DNA of 44,088 nt from assembly GCF_017302315.1 (NCBI RefSeq), contig NZ_JAFLDT010000028.1, positions 1 through 44,088 of the forward strand, in the 5' to 3' direction. The DNA is from Zoogloea sp. (GTDB lineage Bacteria > Pseudomonadota > Gammaproteobacteria > Burkholderiales > Rhodocyclaceae). The position numbers and the translations under genes are program-made. The notes below the pieces were generated by a model. It was not told the origin of the DNA. It saw nothing but the letters and a program-made list of their open reading frames with translations, and did no database searches. Positions 459 to 7,434 of the stretch are shown piece after piece. Numbering within the stretch: the first letter of the stretch is position 1; the number at the start of each line of letters is the position of its first letter.

Positions 459-1135
459 GAGTCGAGCCTACTGTGGGATGGGAAAACCTGCCGGAGCCGG
501 TGGATGGGTTGGGGGAGTGGAAGGTCGGCCGGGGGGTGTCGCGGTTATTCTTGGGGGGTGTGAATGTCGCGTTGTCGGCCGGAGCGGACGTTCCTATGCA
601 CTGCAGTATCATTCCACTCTGGACTACAAAGCAGCCATTGATACCGGGCTGTGCACTGACCCGGCCGTCTATAGCGGTAAGCACTCATATAGAGAGGGCT
701 ACGCTGTCCTGCTAAGTCAGCCAGTAGCACTACACAAACTACTCCATGTAGAAGCTGTATGCTTAAGGTATTCCTTGGTAGGGAGTAGAAAGGTCTACTC
801 GATGATTATCGTAAGCATTGGGGCGGAACAGCGTTCGCTCCAAGACGCGACCCCGGTCTGGATCAATGAACAGGTACAACGGCGGCGCGCAGACGGACAG
901 CCCATCTGTGCAAGAGTGTCAATCCAGCAAGGCGGGCTAAATATGAGTCTTGCCACACCCAACTGCACAAGCACACAAGGTGGCGGACGGCGACCAACCC
1001 CAGATGAGAACGACCTTTTGCGCTTTGGGCTGATCGGGGGCCCAATGACCCACATTTTTCTGGAGGCAACCTCGTCGCCTTCCTTACACAACTTCGGCGG
1101 CTCTTCGCCTGAACCCCTCTGGCCCGTGAATGACC
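459..1135. other. Gene-free stretch between IS remnants and the TIR operon
   Basis: About 680 bases with no frame that looks like a protein. Several open frames cross it on both strands, but their translations are low in recognisable motifs and rich in Arg, Pro, Ser and Cys, as expected from noise. Base composition is more AT-rich than the core genes to the right. No clear terminator or repeat array was seen. The promoter of the TIR gene must lie in the right-hand part, but I cannot point to convincing -35 and -10 elements. Confidence 0.5.
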
Positions 1136-2083
1136 ATGGCAAAACTGTTTTTTTCATACTCCCATAAGGACGAGGATCTGCGCAACGAACTCGAAACTCA
1201 TCTTGCGCTATTGAAACGCCAAGGAGTGATTTCGTCGTGGCACGACCGCCGGATTTCGGCCGGCAGCGACATCGACAAGACTATCGATGCCGAACTGGAA
1301 TCATCGCAGATCATCTTGCTTCTGGTGAGTGCGCACTTCCTTGCATCCGACTACTGTTTTGAAAGGGAGATGGCTAGAGCGCTAGAGAAGCACAACGAAG
1401 GAAGTGCAACCGTCATTCCGGTCATACTTCACCCCTGTGATTGGCACTCGGCGCAGTTTGGTAAGCTCCGGGCCACGCCTACTGATGGCAAAGCAATTTC
1501 TATGTATGCCAATCGACACGAGGCCCTTGCCATCGTTGCTAGAGATGTTCGGGAAATAGCCACCAGCGTTTCGGCAATGGAGCCTCCATCGCGAGAAGCC
1601 CCACCACTAGAACGTCTTGATCTCAGATCAAGCCCGAAACCTCGCTCAAGTAACCTGAGGGTAAAGCGCAAGTTCGACGATCACGAGCGGGACGGATTCC
1701 TGGAAGACAGCTATGAATACATCGCTCGTTACTTCGATGGTTCATTGGAGGAACTAGCCGCAAGGAACCCGCAGCTGAAAACGCGTTTCAAGCGCCTCGA
1801 TGCCACGAGCTTTACCGCTTCGATCTATAAGAACGGCCAACGGGTCGCACAATGCTCTGTGTGGTATGGAAGTGCCTTAGGTTCGTCCGGCATCGCCTAT
1901 TCCCAATCCGCAGACGCCCCTCGCAACAGCCTCAATGAGTCGCTTTCCGTCGTAGATGATGGCTATGCCCTCCAACTCAAGCCGCTGGGCATGCAGCGTT
2001 ACGGCGGCGATCGTGACAAGGCTTTATCTGAACAGGGTGCTGCGGAGTATTACTGGGAAATCCTTATCCGCCCTCTGCAGTAA
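1136..2083 (+). CDS. TIR-domain protein, probable NAD-cleaving defence effector
   Basis: The 315-aa product begins MAKLFFSYSHKDED, the classic first strand and box 1 of a TIR domain. A BB-loop-like RRISAGSDID follows near residue 38, then a FLASDYCFEREM helix in which Glu78 sits where bacterial TIR NADases carry their catalytic glutamate. The TIR fold occupies roughly residues 1-145. A second, unrecognised domain covers about 180-315 and is rich in aromatic and charged residues. There is no signal peptide or membrane segment. ATG 1136 is preferred over ATG 1130 because MAKLFFSYSH is the usual TIR start; no strong ribosome site separates them. It is followed after 29 bases by a small ORF and then a 299-aa ORF, suggesting one operon. 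TIR proteins in prokaryotic defence (Thoeris, CBASS, TIR-pAgo) deplete or modify NAD+; that role here is inference. Confidence 0.85.
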   Translation: MAKLFFSYSHKDEDLRNELETHLALLKRQGVISSWHDRRISAGSDIDKTIDAELESSQIILLLVSAHFLASDYCFEREMARALEKHNEGSATVIPVILHPCDWHSAQFGKLRATPTDGKAISMYANRHEALAIVARDVREIATSVSAMEPPSREAPPLERLDLRSSPKPRSSNLRVKRKFDDHERDGFLEDSYEYIARYFDGSLEELAARNPQLKTRFKRLDATSFTASIYKNGQRVAQCSVWYGSALGSSGIAYSQSADAPRNSLNESLSVVDDGYALQLKPLGMQRYGGDRDKALSEQGAAEYYWEILIRPLQ

Positions 2084-2112
2084 CCACCTGAGCACCATAT
2101 TGAGCCAATGTC

Positions 2113-2438
2113 ATGAAAATTAGCCCCAAGGTCGTCGACGAATTTATCCATCTTAAAAGACGGCACACGCGGCTTACACAAATTTTTTCCCGTTTCGTCG
2201 AGAGAGCGCAGTATTTCGTAGGTAAACACTCATCGCTCAAGGCGCTCAAACTGAAGGTTTCCGCGGACGGATACAACCTTGATGCCATTTTTGCTGGCAT
2301 ACACCTGCGCTTCCTGTTACTTCCAGGTTATGGCGAAGATGGGGCAGTGCGAGGCCGGGTCATGTAGATGTTCGCTTTCCGTTCGTTGCCGTTACCGTAA
2401 ATGGATGTCCCGGCATTGAAGTCCTTCCACCTTTTTAA
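2113..2438 (+). pseudogene. Small unknown protein of the TIR operon, apparent -1 frameshift
   Basis: A frame starting at ATG 2113 encodes MKISPKVVDEFIHLKRRHTR and continues as a plausible basic, helical protein until about 2340, then runs into a TAG at 2365. The adjacent frame from 2340 continues with protein-like sequence (GHVDVRFPFVAVTVNGCPGI) to a TAA at 2436-2438. The two are joined in one frame if a single G is added to the GGGG run at 2341-2344. The restored product would be about 108 aa. It could be a real inactivating deletion, a sequencing error or, less likely, programmed frameshifting. The 29-base gap from the TIR gene and 18-base gap to the next ORF indicate an operon. I do not recognise the family. 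If the short form is real, it ends at 2367 with 84 residues. Confidence 0.55.
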
Positions 2439-2456
2439 GCCCCTCTGGAGTAATGA

Positions 2457-3356
2457 ATGCATCTTGGCGTTGAACGTAACTCCGGTCATATCTACGAGGG
2501 ATACTCAGCACCTCAGTTTGCCGTCTGGCCTCGCCCCGCCATTACTTTAGCGACACTGATTGAATCTCCTAACGGCTGGAATAGGCTTCCTCGGAACATG
2601 AGCACCACGCCTTTTCCATGGCTGTTTAGGGAGGAGTCGTTCGATCCCGTGACCAGGATCCGACGTGGGCGTTTGTATGAGTCATGCACTGGGGCTCAAC
2701 CGCAGATTGTTCCGGTCAGCGCACATCCATTCGATCACGAAGCTGTAAGAGAAATTGCCGCCAGTCGGCACCCAACAAAGAGCCTCTACACATACGGGCC
2801 ATGCCAATCTATGGTTGCGCGGCCCGACCGCGGGTTCGGCACTGTTCTTGCCCTCGGAACAGGCCATGCAGCTTCGGCATGGAGAGCCATTCAGCTAGAG
2901 GTGCTGGTAGACGACGATATTCTGGTAACGCTGAAGGCGTTATCTGCCTTCGGAATATTGCCAGAAGTCGATTTTGGAGATCTTGCCGACGAGCTTCGCC
3001 TGCCTGTTCGGCGAGCCATTGACCGAGTTCTCGATGCTGCATTCCGTGAGTCCCCGATTTCCGTGGTCGATCACTGCCGCAATGCAGCCCAAGTGATTCT
3101 GTCGCGATGGATGGTTCATTCAGGCGCGAGCAACAGTTTGCTAGCCAAAGACCTCGGTGAGGTGTGCAAAGCAATCGAGCGTGATTTCAATAAATCAGCA
3201 GCGCGAGATGCAGCTAACATTGTTCGATTGCTACATTCTCGCGGGAAGGCCAATAAGCAAGAGACAGAACAACTTCGTCTAGCCGTAGAAGAGGATGCAA
3301 CACTATCGATAGAGGCTCTCGGATTCCTTTTGCGTGAATTAGGTTGGGCAAAGTAG
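2457..3356 (+). CDS. Unknown 299-aa protein, third gene of the TIR operon
   Basis: The product begins MHLGVERNSGHIYEGYSAPQ. A GGAG at 2447-2450 lies six bases before ATG 2457, and in-frame stops immediately upstream fix the start. Residues 1-150 look like a mixed alpha/beta domain containing SFDPVTRIRRGRLYE, an arginine-rich motif that seems deliberate. Residues 150-299 are strongly helical and charged, with no membrane segment or signal peptide. I do not recognise a family. Its position, immediately behind the TIR gene and a small ORF and with matching AT-richer codon use, argues that the three were acquired together and work together. A sensor or regulatory role for this protein, with TIR as the effector, is only a hypothesis. 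Confidence 0.75.
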   Translation: MHLGVERNSGHIYEGYSAPQFAVWPRPAITLATLIESPNGWNRLPRNMSTTPFPWLFREESFDPVTRIRRGRLYESCTGAQPQIVPVSAHPFDHEAVREIAASRHPTKSLYTYGPCQSMVARPDRGFGTVLALGTGHAASAWRAIQLEVLVDDDILVTLKALSAFGILPEVDFGDLADELRLPVRRAIDRVLDAAFRESPISVVDHCRNAAQVILSRWMVHSGASNSLLAKDLGEVCKAIERDFNKSAARDAANIVRLLHSRGKANKQETEQLRLAVEEDATLSIEALGFLLRELGWAK

Positions 3357-3688: not shown

Positions 3689-4399
3689 ATGACCGAAATG
3701 GCAAGACACAAAGTACCTCCGGTTAATTTTCGTATTCGAACCCATCCAAAATCGGCACGGCATGCCTATGAACTAATAGAACAAGCCGATACTGCTATGA
3801 AGAAGCTTTTTCTTGGAGAGGATTTATCGCAGCGGGAATGGAATTCACTTCTAGGCTCAGACTACCTCGAGCCGACACAAACCGAACGTAGGGAAGAAGG
3901 CGTTGAAGAATTTACTGAACAGCTTTACTCGGCCTCAACGCTACAGCTTGCAAGCGCGCATCCATTTATATACACAGACATCGAGACTGAAATTCTCGCT
4001 TACTTTGGACGGCACCCGGAATTGCTGTACTCGTTGCCGCCGCGAAAGTTCGAAGAACTGATTGCATCTGTGTTTCACAAAAACGGCTTCGATGTAGAAC
4101 TAACGCCAGAGACGCGCGACGGTGGGATCGACATAATTGCAGTGCAGCGTGATGATTTGTGCGGCGGCAGTTTGAACTTGATTGAGTGCAAACGTTATCT
4201 TCCTCACAACACCGTGGGCATCGGCGTTGTTCAGCGTCTGTACGGTGTTGTTGAGCAGCACAAGGCGACAAAAGGAATCATTGTTACAACTTCCAGCTTC
4301 ACTAAAGACGCAAAAGAGGCTGCGGAATTCTCTAAGCATCGACTTGTTCTTAACGATTACAGCAACTTGACGTCTTGGTTGAAAGCGTTTAGAAAATAG
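3689..4399 (+). CDS. Mrr-like restriction endonuclease domain protein
   Basis: The 236-aa protein has an uncharacterised charged N-terminal half (residues 1-110) and a C-terminal Mrr-type nuclease domain (about 113-230). Visible catalytic elements of the PD-(D/E)xK fold are the FEEL helix near residue 121, RDGGIDI with Asp148, and IECKRY with Glu166 and Lys168, followed by a conserved GVVQRLYGVVEQHKATKGIIVTT segment (residues 179-201). This is the layout of Mrr_cat proteins, which cleave DNA, often when it carries modified bases. No methyltransferase lies next to it, so it would act as a modification-dependent (type IV-like) or stand-alone nuclease; that is inference. The start at ATG 3689 lacks a good ribosome site, and ATG 3698 is a close alternative. 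Confidence 0.85.
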   Translation: MTEMARHKVPPVNFRIRTHPKSARHAYELIEQADTAMKKLFLGEDLSQREWNSLLGSDYLEPTQTERREEGVEEFTEQLYSASTLQLASAHPFIYTDIETEILAYFGRHPELLYSLPPRKFEELIASVFHKNGFDVELTPETRDGGIDIIAVQRDDLCGGSLNLIECKRYLPHNTVGIGVVQRLYGVVEQHKATKGIIVTTSSFTKDAKEAAEFSKHRLVLNDYSNLTSWLKAFRK

Positions 4400-5412: not shown

Positions 5413-6060
5413 ATGCTCTACACCAAGCTCAATCCGGAAAAGGCGCTGATCTGGCGTATCGTCCATCGTGACAACCTGCCCTGGATTCTCGACAACGGTC
5501 TGTACTGCGGCAACAGCGTGGTGAAGGCTCCGGATTGGATCAGCATCGGTAATCCGGAATTGATCGACAAACGCGCCAAGCATCCGGTGCCGCTACCTCC
5601 GGGGGGCTGGCTGAACGACTATGTGCCGTTCTACTTCACCCCTTTCTCGCCGATGCTGCGCAACATCCACACCGCGTGGGGTGGGATTCAGAAACGGTCG
5701 AACGAGGAGATCGTGATCCTTGTTTCCAGCTTGCCTCATATCGCCGCACTTGGCTTACCGTTCTTGTTCACCGACAGCCACGCCTACTACCAGTGGGCAC
5801 GCTTCTATTCAGCGTTGGCAGATCTCGACAAGATCGACTGGCCGCTGTTGCAACGCCGCGACTTCAAGCGCGACCCGGAAGATCTGGCCAAGTTCGAGCG
5901 CTACCAGGCCGAGGCGCTGATTCACCAGCATGTGCCGGTGCAAGGCCTTCTGGGCCTGGTGTGCTACACCGAAGCAGTGAAACAGGGCATTGAAGGGGAG
6001 ATTGCGGCCCGCCATCTGACACTACCGGTTCATGCACGTACAGAGTGGTATTTCTCATGA
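5413..6060 (+). CDS. darT: DarT toxin, DNA ADP-ribosyltransferase (DUF4433 family)
   Basis: The 215-aa protein carries the DarT hallmarks: the N-terminal [20 protein letters not shown] near residue 16 (H18 of the NAD-binding region), [13 protein letters not shown] near residue 69, and [13 protein letters not shown] in which Glu167 occupies the catalytic position. DarT enzymes use NAD+ to ADP-ribosylate bases in single-stranded DNA, blocking replication; several protect against phage. An AGGA at 5399-5402 precedes ATG 5413 by ten bases and an in-frame stop lies just upstream, fixing the start. The stop overlaps the start of the antitoxin gene (ATGA at 6057-6060), the usual coupling for this pair. 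All key motifs appear intact, so the toxin is probably active. Confidence 0.93.
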
Positions 6061-7160
6061 TCACATTCACACAAGGCAATCTGCTCGAGGCCCGTGCCGA
6101 AGCACTGGTCAATACTGTCAACACCGTCGGGGTGATGGGCAAGGGCATTGCGCTGATGTTCAAGGAACGCTTTGCCGACAACTTCCGCCTGTATGCCGCC
6201 GCCTGCAAGGCAAAGGAAGTGCAGACCGGCAAGATGTTCGTCACTTCTGTGCATGAGCTCGATGGGCCGCGATGGATCGTCAACTTCCCCACCAAGCAGC
6301 ACTGGCGCGCGCCTTCGCGCATGGAGTGGGTGGTCGAGGGTTTGCAGAGCTTGCGGCAGTTTCTGCTTGAGCATCAGGTCGCGTCGGTTGCCGTCCCGCC
6401 GCTGGGTGCGGGCAACGGGGGCTTGAACTGGCTCGACGTGCGCAAGGAGATCGAACGGGCCTTGGGGGATCTGGACGCGGAGATACTGGTGTTCGAACCA
6501 AGCACCCAGTATCAAAACGTGGCCAAGCATGCCGGCGTGGAGGTGCTGACCCCTGCGCGCGCGCTGATCGCGGAACTGGTGCGCCGTTACTGGGTGCTGG
6601 GCATGGAGTGCAGCCTGCTGGAGATCCAGAAGCTGGCGTGGTTTCTTGAACGCGCCATTGAGCACTTCAATCCGGGCAACAATCCGCTGGACCTACAGTT
6701 CGTGGCCCACAAGTACGGACCCTATGCGAATCGGCTGGATCACCTGCTGAACAATCTTGACGGTAGCTACCTGCATTGCGACAAGCGCATCAGCGACGCG
6801 GACCCGATGGATGTGATCTGGTTTGATGACGCGCGCAAGGCCTTCGTACAGGCTTATCTGAAGAGTGAGGGCAAGGCATACACGGAAGCCCTTGAGTTCA
6901 CCACCGCCCTGATCGACGGCTTTGAGTCGCCCTTCGGCATGGAACTATTGGCCACCGTCGATTGGCTATTGGCCCGCGAAGGCGTGCCCCCCACGGTGCC
7001 TGCCCTGCGCGAGGGCTTGCGCCGCTGGCGCGGTGGACCCAATGCAGCCGAGCGCAAGAGCCGCTTGTTTGACGACCGGGCGCTGGGCATTGCCTTGGTG
7101 CGTTTAGGCACGCTCGCCGCACATTCACCAACCACACCACCGAAAGTCCCATCCCCCTGA
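6057..7160 (+). CDS. darG: DarG antitoxin, macrodomain ADP-ribosyl-glycohydrolase
   Basis: The 367-aa product begins [20 protein letters not shown]; residues 1-155 form a macrodomain with the ribose-binding signature [20 protein letters not shown] (residues 18-37) and a [10 protein letters not shown] loop. The macrodomain removes ADP-ribose from DNA. The C-terminal part (about 165-350, with [20 protein letters not shown] and [17 protein letters not shown]) matches the DarT-binding domain of DarG. ATG 6057 is chosen because it overlaps the darT stop as ATGA; the frame opens earlier at 6045 inside darT. The last ten residues (TTPPKVPSP region) run into an IS110 remnant at 7159, so the natural C-terminus may have been replaced; the functional domains look complete. 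Confidence 0.92.
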
Positions 7161-7434
7161 GCAGGCCAATCCCCGGGGTGTCACGCAGACGACGGGCGCT
7201 TTCCTGGCTCTTGAGCATCAGGCTGATCTCCTCTTCCATCGCTTGGACGTGCCGCTCGATGTCCGCAAGGGCCAGCAGTTGATCGTCCACCAGCCGCACC
7301 ATGACCGCCGGCACAGCGTCGTTGATCTCGGCGCGTTGCTGGGCCAGTTTTCGCAGGCCTGAGTGCCGACCTCGGGGCAGGGTCACGCCAAATTCGTAGA
7401 GCAGCCCGCGCAGGGCTGTCCGACGCCCTCTCAC
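7159..7434 (-). pseudogene. IS110-family transposase fragment
   Basis: On the minus strand a 92-codon stretch reads [32 protein letters not shown] and intervening helical sequence. This is the linker and start of the Transposase_20 domain found in the middle of IS110-family transposases. The N-terminal DEDD domain and the C-terminal serine region are missing, so it is dead. One end begins directly at the stop codon of the nucleoside-recognition gene (7431-7433), and the other ends at the stop of darG. Both junctions are therefore insertion or deletion scars. The open frame continues to 6898 through darG, but that part is a shadow of darG. Confidence 0.75.

What the first reader, a model, noticed from the sequence alone, without database searches (positions are those of the whole stretch)
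1136..3356. Candidate undescribed three-gene TIR defence operon
A TIR protein with an intact candidate catalytic Glu78 and an unknown C-terminal domain is followed after 29 and 18 bases by two proteins I cannot assign: about 108 aa (frameshifted) and 299 aa with an SFDPVTRIRRGRLYE motif. No SIR2 or SLOG ThsA, no Argonaute and no CBASS cyclase is nearby, so it does not match the TIR systems I know. The tight spacing and shared composition suggest a functional unit.
Basis: partly seen in the sequence, partly recalled or inferred. Interest (0 to 1): 0.75.

Follow-up and report, generated by a model that had tools for sequence, protein, structure and literature searches.

The report
TIR defence gene with small partner

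Summary
The sequence facts are right: an intact TIR gene (1136-2083, Glu78 present), a broken gene 2 (2113-2438) and an intact 299-aa gene 3 (2457-3356). The proposed three-gene operon is mostly not supported. Gene 3 was found in 0 of 98 other TIR loci, and a TIR relative in 0 of 9 other gene-3 loci. Gene 2 accompanies the TIR gene in 2 of 98 and also occurs alone. The conserved partner lies upstream: a ~101-aa gene at 802-1112, broken across two frames here. It directly flanks the TIR gene in 14 of 98 other loci. On the tree it is confined to one TIR group (15 of 22 rows, 0 of 61 outside). Four family libraries have no model for it. The TIR protein matches PADLOC's ThsB1 end to end, but no ThsA was found, so this is not a complete Thoeris system. 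Best reading: an NAD-consuming TIR effector with its own C-terminal domain plus a small sensor or activator protein, in a defence island with Mrr and DarTG. The window's copy looks partly decayed. Function is inferred; nothing was tested at the bench.

The parts
802..1112 (+). Small partner gene (~101 aa), broken: first part 802-1026 in one frame, last part (about 999-1112) in another; stop at 1110-1112, 23 bases before the TIR start
   Evidence: tblastn of the intact relative L037:7048-7434: 48% over 75 aa (E 7e-22) and 55% over 33 aa (E 2e-8); profile hits in the same two frames; stop read from the sequence
1136..2083 (+). TIR protein, 315 aa, intact
   Evidence: Pfam TIR_2 2.9e-15; PADLOC ThsB1 PDLC00420, residues 1-315 against 1-316/319, E 1.1e-121; 81% identity to L058, 75% to L037
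1148..1462 (+). TIR domain (residues 5-109) with candidate catalytic Glu78
   Evidence: Pfam range; E78 invariant in 49 of 49 rows
1679..2077 (+). C-terminal domain (residues 182-314): long helix, six strands, helix; joined to the TIR part by a low-confidence stretch (150-174)
   Evidence: AlphaFold2 model, mean pLDDT 83.9, pTM 0.47
2113..2438 (+). Gene 2, broken and apparently short of its C-terminal end; occasional companion, not a core part
   Evidence: 32% to L071 from 2166 on (E 2e-12); open relatives are 139-150 aa
2457..3356 (+). Gene 3, 299 aa, intact: a separate family, judged not part of the TIR module
   Evidence: Nine other loci without a TIR relative; homologues follow an HsdS-like gene or a PDC-S06 ATPase

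Best explanation
The core is a two-gene module: a ~101-aa protein beside a TIR protein that has its own C-terminal domain. On infection the TIR domain most likely clusters and consumes NAD+ (or makes a signal from it), stopping the cell before phage release. The C-terminal domain and the small protein most likely form the sensing and switching part, with the small protein as sensor or activator rather than antitoxin. Genes 2 and 3 are neighbours in the same defence island. The window's small gene and gene 2 are broken, so this copy is probably impaired. Shown here: gene pairing, its restriction to one TIR group, the conserved Glu78, domain layout, broken frames. Inferred: NADase activity, phage trigger, role of the small protein.
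For: The small gene is directly beside the TIR gene in 15 of 99 TIR loci including this one: upstream in 13 (overlapping by one base in L092 and L094, otherwise 9-28 bases away) and about 50 bases downstream in 2 (L066, L067). In a tree of 83 TIR rows all 15 lie in one group of 22 rows (SH-aLRT 97), 0 in the other 61. Small and TIR identities covary (12 loci, Mantel r 0.66, 2 of 10000 permutations as high). Searches beyond TIR loci: 2 of 398 genomes, the own and G201, whose coordinates equal L060's; 1 of 229, the own; 0 of 72,556 plasmid records with either of two queries; none in viral contigs. Glu78 invariant in 49 of 49 rows. Of 9 neighbours of TIR loci picked by eye, 8 match PADLOC models at E 1e-5, among them type I RM subunits, methyltransferases and a type II REase; the window adds Mrr and DarTG. 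Against an antitoxin role: L058, L063 and L068 carry the TIR gene with no small gene found, and the window keeps an intact TIR gene beside a broken small gene. SpbK is a worked precedent for a TIR NADase with its own sensor domain (PMC12847820, passages).
Against: No activity or phage protection has been measured. 7 of 22 rows of the group, including the nearest relative of the window's TIR (L058, 81%), lack the small gene, and the tree needs six changes of state, so it is not obligatory. The small protein's model matches no solved fold (best E 2.1), so its role is a guess. 11 of the 13 named small-gene loci are metagenome bins, whose labels may be wrong for short contigs. The TIR model's pTM is low (0.47), so the arrangement of its two domains is unsure.
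Confidence: 0.55

Rival explanations
1. The small protein is an antitoxin-like inhibitor that holds the TIR protein off and is lost or degraded on infection.
For: Small gene first in 13 of 15 loci, close to or overlapping the TIR start, as in many toxin-antitoxin pairs (the comparison is from general knowledge).
Against: TIR genes persist with no small gene found in L058, L063, L068 and beside a broken copy in the window; in L066 and L067 it comes second.
Confidence: 0.2
2. The protein is a ThsB of a Thoeris system, making a cADPR-type signal for a ThsA elsewhere in the genome.
For: End-to-end match to PADLOC ThsB1 PDLC00420; weak Pfam ThsB_TIR match, E 0.001, under its cut-off.
Against: No STALD (ThsA SLOG) domain in the own genome; 2 of 41 genomes searched carry one (L091's was not held), at coordinates that do not fit the TIR contigs. 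ThsA_Macro in 0 of 17 genomes, but the control did not ring, so this is weak. Other Thoeris effector types were not searched for.
Confidence: 0.1
3. One reading: TIR, gene 2 and gene 3 form one functional unit.
For: Tight spacing and similar G+C; gene 2 relatives near small+TIR in L060 and L071 (Fisher p 0.019 without the window, 0.0029 with it).
Against: Gene 3 in 0 of 98 other TIR loci, a TIR relative in 0 of 9 other gene-3 loci; gene 2 apart from any TIR in G108; gene 2 lies after the TIR gene in L060 but before the small gene in L071.
Confidence: 0.06
4. The window's copy is a non-functional remnant: the unit has lost its small gene and gene 2, and the TIR gene merely has not decayed yet. 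(About this copy only; not exclusive with the best explanation of the family.)
For: The small gene and gene 2 have broken frames while long ORFs elsewhere in the contig are open.
Against: TIR and gene 3 are fully open, and Glu78 is kept; the frame breaks could be local assembly errors.
Confidence: 0.4

Closest known systems
Thoeris ThsB (PADLOC ThsB1, PDLC00420)
   Same: Full-length sequence match, TIR domain with conserved Glu
   Different: No ThsA found beside it; carries its own ~130-aa C-terminal domain (as the PADLOC model's length of 319 implies for that family); paired here with an undescribed small gene
SpbK (B. subtilis TIR NADase; PMC12847820, passages read)
   Same: One protein with a TIR domain plus a second domain that could sense phage
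   Different: SpbK has an N-terminal helical bundle and a C-terminal TIR; here the TIR is N-terminal and the second domain is helix-strands-helix. PADLOC spbK match only E 0.031, TIR part alone
Type VI retron next to a TIR gene (PADLOC RT_VI)
   Same: The same TIR family directly follows a reverse transcriptase gene in five other loci; the one RT tested is RT_VI
   Different: No RT among the window proteins scanned; small gene instead
Cat1 / TIR-SAVED / SPARTA TIR effectors
   Same: TIR domain; Cat1 is the best PDB sequence match (E 2.4e-8, residues 2-98); PADLOC SAVED_TIR matches residues 3-207 at E 1e-11
   Different: No CARF, SAVED or APAZ domain by Pfam in this protein, and no CRISPR, cyclase or Argonaute gene among the proteins scanned

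Membership tests
TIR-domain protein family | TIR domain above the curated cut-off | tested here: met
   TIR_2 57.3 bits against 28
TIR-domain protein family | Conserved Glu at the TIR active-site position | tested here: met
   E78 in 49 of 49 rows; that it is the catalytic Glu rests on position, not on superposition
TIR-domain protein family | NAD+ cleavage | not testable with these tools
   Needs an enzyme assay
Thoeris | ThsB-family TIR protein | tested here: met
   PDLC00420 E 1.1e-121, full length
Thoeris | ThsA effector with SIR2-SLOG, encoded alongside | tested here: not met
   No STALD domain in the own genome; none among the window proteins scanned
Thoeris | ThsA effector with TM-Macro, encoded alongside | tested here: inconclusive
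   0 of 17 genomes, but no control genome rang
Retron with TIR effector | Reverse transcriptase beside the TIR gene | tested here: not met
   No RT among 8 proteins of the first 7.2 kb; seen in five other loci
CBASS / SPARTA | Cyclase plus SAVED, or Argonaute plus APAZ | tested here: not met
   PADLOC and Pfam scans of 8 proteins of the first 7.2 kb found none; the SAVED_TIR model matches only its first half, 15-220 of 404
SpbK | N-terminal helical bundle followed by TIR | tested here: not met
   TIR at residues 5-109, other domain behind it

The most novel reading that the evidence does not exclude
A family of TIR effectors with a shared C-terminal domain plugs into interchangeable partner genes: a ~101-aa protein of unmatched fold in one multi-phylum group, a type VI retron reverse transcriptase in roseobacters and kin, a ~160-aa protein in other alphaproteobacteria. 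The small protein would be a new kind of phage sensor or switch for TIR immunity.
Probability: 0.3. Interest if true: 0.7.

Novelty: new variant of a known kind. Interest (0 to 1): 0.45.

Why it matters
How bacterial TIR proteins sense infection has been worked out for few systems. A small, conserved partner gene specific to one TIR group gives a compact, testable sensor-effector pair. It also shows that proteins filed as ThsB include a large family that sits beside genes other than ThsA, so automated labels may mislead.

Tried and rejected
Ubiquitin-like operon as the partner: in L037 the pair follows multiubiquitin, DUF6791-ThiF and DUF6527 genes, but tblastn found these in none of the other loci searched, so a neighbour only.

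Gene 2 as a free copy of the TIR C-terminal domain (similar helix-strand-helix pattern by eye): profile comparison gives probability 0.9%. A first run was in the wrong alignment mode and is disregarded.

Fold or sequence matches: small protein, none in PDB by fold (best E 2.1) or profile (best E 1.9); gene 3, none convincing (best E 0.058, entry named DYNA_1b7); gene 2, none (best E 1.5). One gene-3 relative has a sub-cut-off HEPN match (E 0.0025), too weak to use. The 50 fold matches shown of 1135 for the TIR model are all TIR-bearing proteins, so the C-terminal domain's fold stays unidentified.

Neighbour clustering: the two largest clusters (34 and 28 loci) are reverse-strand ORFs near the TIR gene, which I took for antisense shadows and left out of the argument, as I did other clusters that looked like overlapping-frame artefacts; this sorting was by eye.

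Literature: nine answered full-text searches showed no paper on this pair in their listings; this is not proof of absence.

Full report
Setting. The window is the whole of one contig (C87, 44,088 bases) of a 4.5-Mb, 165-contig genome. Its first ~7 kb looks like a defence island: the TIR gene, gene 2, gene 3, an Mrr-type endonuclease (3689-4399) and a DarT-DarG pair (5413-7160). The ten further proteins I scanned are not defence genes by Pfam and include Kdp potassium-transport genes and PriA. The stretch 1136-3356 has 52.8% G+C against 65.5% for 7161-44088.

The observation. All stated features are in the sequence. The TIR gene is 1136-2083; gene 2 starts 29 bases later and is broken; gene 3 starts 18 bases after the end of gene 2's second frame and is intact. 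Glu78 is present and invariant in 49 of 49 aligned rows: the window, 47 of the 80 genome loci and one viral locus.

The missed gene. A close relative (L037, 75% identical TIR) has a 129-codon ORF just upstream whose last ~101 codons match window 802-1026 in one frame (48% over 75 aa, E 7e-22) and 999-1097 in another (55% over 33 aa, E 2e-8). So the same gene is present but broken in the window; its second frame stops at 1112, 23 bases before the TIR start.

Is it a real partner? A scan of the genome collection (84,980 species) with a TIR alignment found 291 relatives and kept the best 80. The small gene was found in 14 of 98, directly beside the TIR gene each time: 12 upstream and 2 (L066, L067) downstream. 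Iterated profile search found no further copies. In L092 and L094 its last base is the first base of the TIR gene. In a quick tree of 83 TIR rows (the window, the 80 genome loci, L037 and L139; the 14 plasmid loci and L035, L036 left out), all 15 small-gene rows fall in one group of 22 (support 97), none in the other 61; the tree needs six gains or losses. The 13 named small-gene loci carry labels of six phyla (Pseudomonadota, Thermodesulfobacteriota, Latescibacterota, Actinomycetota, Chloroflexota, Myxococcota); 11 of the 13 are metagenome bins. Small and TIR identities covary (12 of 13 aligned loci, r 0.66, 2 of 10,000 permutations). Beyond TIR loci the small gene was not found: 2 of 398 genomes, the own one and G201, whose coordinates equal those of L060; 1 of 229, the own one (the draws may overlap); 0 of 72,556 plasmid records with either of two queries; none in viral contigs. 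Pfam, PADLOC, NCBIfam and PHROGs give no match above noise (best E 0.072, under cut-off).

Gene 3. Homologues: 3 of 299 genomes including the own, 6 of 72,556 plasmid records, one viral contig, 0 of 50,697 phage records. None of 9 such loci holds a TIR relative, and none of 98 TIR loci holds gene 3 (L008 and L009 are near-copies). It follows other genes tied to defence: in L003 it lies behind an HsdS-like gene (my reading of the sequence, not scanned), 18 bases from the first start codon of its ORF, about 70 from the start that aligns with homologues; in L138 it lies 21 bases behind an ATPase of the candidate-defence set PDC-S06 (E 1.4e-196). On plasmids it lies within 6 kb of DUF262 and ZorA genes (L006) or BREX PglZ (L010); L011 shows no named defence gene within 6 kb apart from a RelE/ParE toxin pair. 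It behaves as an independent rider, mostly of defence islands. In G076 it matches in two pieces.

Gene 2. It has open relatives of 144 aa (L071, upstream of the small gene) and 139 aa (L060, behind the TIR gene), and 150 aa in G108 (profile E 8.4e-15), where tblastn finds no TIR, small gene or gene 3 within 6 kb. Among 98 other TIR loci it is in 2, both with the small gene (Fisher p 0.019 without the window, 0.0029 with it). With the window's own piece alone as query it was found in 1 of 274 genomes, the own, and in no plasmid; with the profile in 3 of 299, the own, G108 and G201. It is an occasional companion at most.

The TIR protein. It matches PADLOC's ThsB1 PDLC00420 from end to end (E 1.1e-121), a family found at E 1e-20 or better in 14 of 369 genomes of the class, four of them over the full length; its own sequence matches 47 plasmid records, 30 over 80% or more, and no phage record. 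The model (mean pLDDT 83.9, pTM 0.47) shows a TIR domain, a low-confidence stretch at 150-174 and a C-terminal domain of helix, six strands, helix. ThsA was not found: STALD in 2 of 41 genomes, not the own, and at coordinates that do not fit the TIR contigs; ThsA_Macro in 0 of 17, with a silent control. Elsewhere the same TIR family directly follows a reverse transcriptase gene (five loci; the one tested matches PADLOC RT_VI, E 1.2e-85) or precedes or slightly overlaps a ~160-aa protein in several alphaproteobacterial loci.

The small protein. The model of L061's copy (mean pLDDT 87.7) is strand-strand-helix-strand-strand-helix-helix; the best PDB fold match has E 2.1, which is no match.

Mechanism. 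SpbK cleaves NAD+ when its second domain docks on a phage portal (PMC12847820, passages), and staphylococcal Thoeris is triggered by a capsid protein through one TIR protein that recruits another (PMC11312562, passages). By analogy the C-terminal domain and the small protein are the likely sensing and switching parts. I favour sensor or activator over antitoxin because TIR genes persist with no small gene found (L058, L063, L068) and beside a broken one in the window. This step is inference.

Verdict. The most useful result is the small-plus-TIR pair. Papers: PMC12847820 and PMC11312562, passages; PMC13142454, outline, abstract and passages, not used in the argument; all others, search listings only.

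Noticed in passing
window 5413-7160: Complete DarT-DarG toxin-antitoxin pair (NCBIfam DarT 255.7 bits against 150, DarG 432.1 against 250).
   Followed up: partly
window 3689-4399: Mrr-type restriction endonuclease domain (Pfam Mrr_cat E 1.6e-29), G+C 47.0%, the lowest of the stretches measured.
   Followed up: no
window 6898-7434: Reverse-strand ORF that resembles a fragment of an IS110-type transposase; recalled from its look, not tested.
   Followed up: no
L037 7045-10750: The small-TIR pair directly follows a ubiquitin-like operon (multiubiquitin, DUF6791-ThiF, DUF6527), with a HTH gene and a weak peptidase-like match before it.
   Followed up: partly
L045, L046, L131, L132, L136: HTH, reverse transcriptase (RT_VI in the one copy tested) and TIR gene in a row, the RT about 20 bases before the TIR gene: possible TIR-equipped type VI retrons.
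   Followed up: partly
L076, L083, L095, L100, L106: A ~155-170-aa protein starts right behind the TIR gene or overlaps its end; the one copy tested has no Pfam, NCBIfam or PADLOC match.
   Followed up: partly
L003 1489-2442; L138 2450-3352: Gene-3 homologues lie directly behind an HsdS-like gene and a PDC-S06 ATPase: a possible accessory protein shared by different defence systems.
   Followed up: partly
L145 6211-6663: Gene-2 homologue standing alone between genes that look like rpoD/dnaG and a metallophosphoesterase (names from look, not tested).
   Followed up: no
L061 2999-7004: Small-TIR pair inserted between a type I methyltransferase gene and a specificity subunit gene.
   Followed up: no
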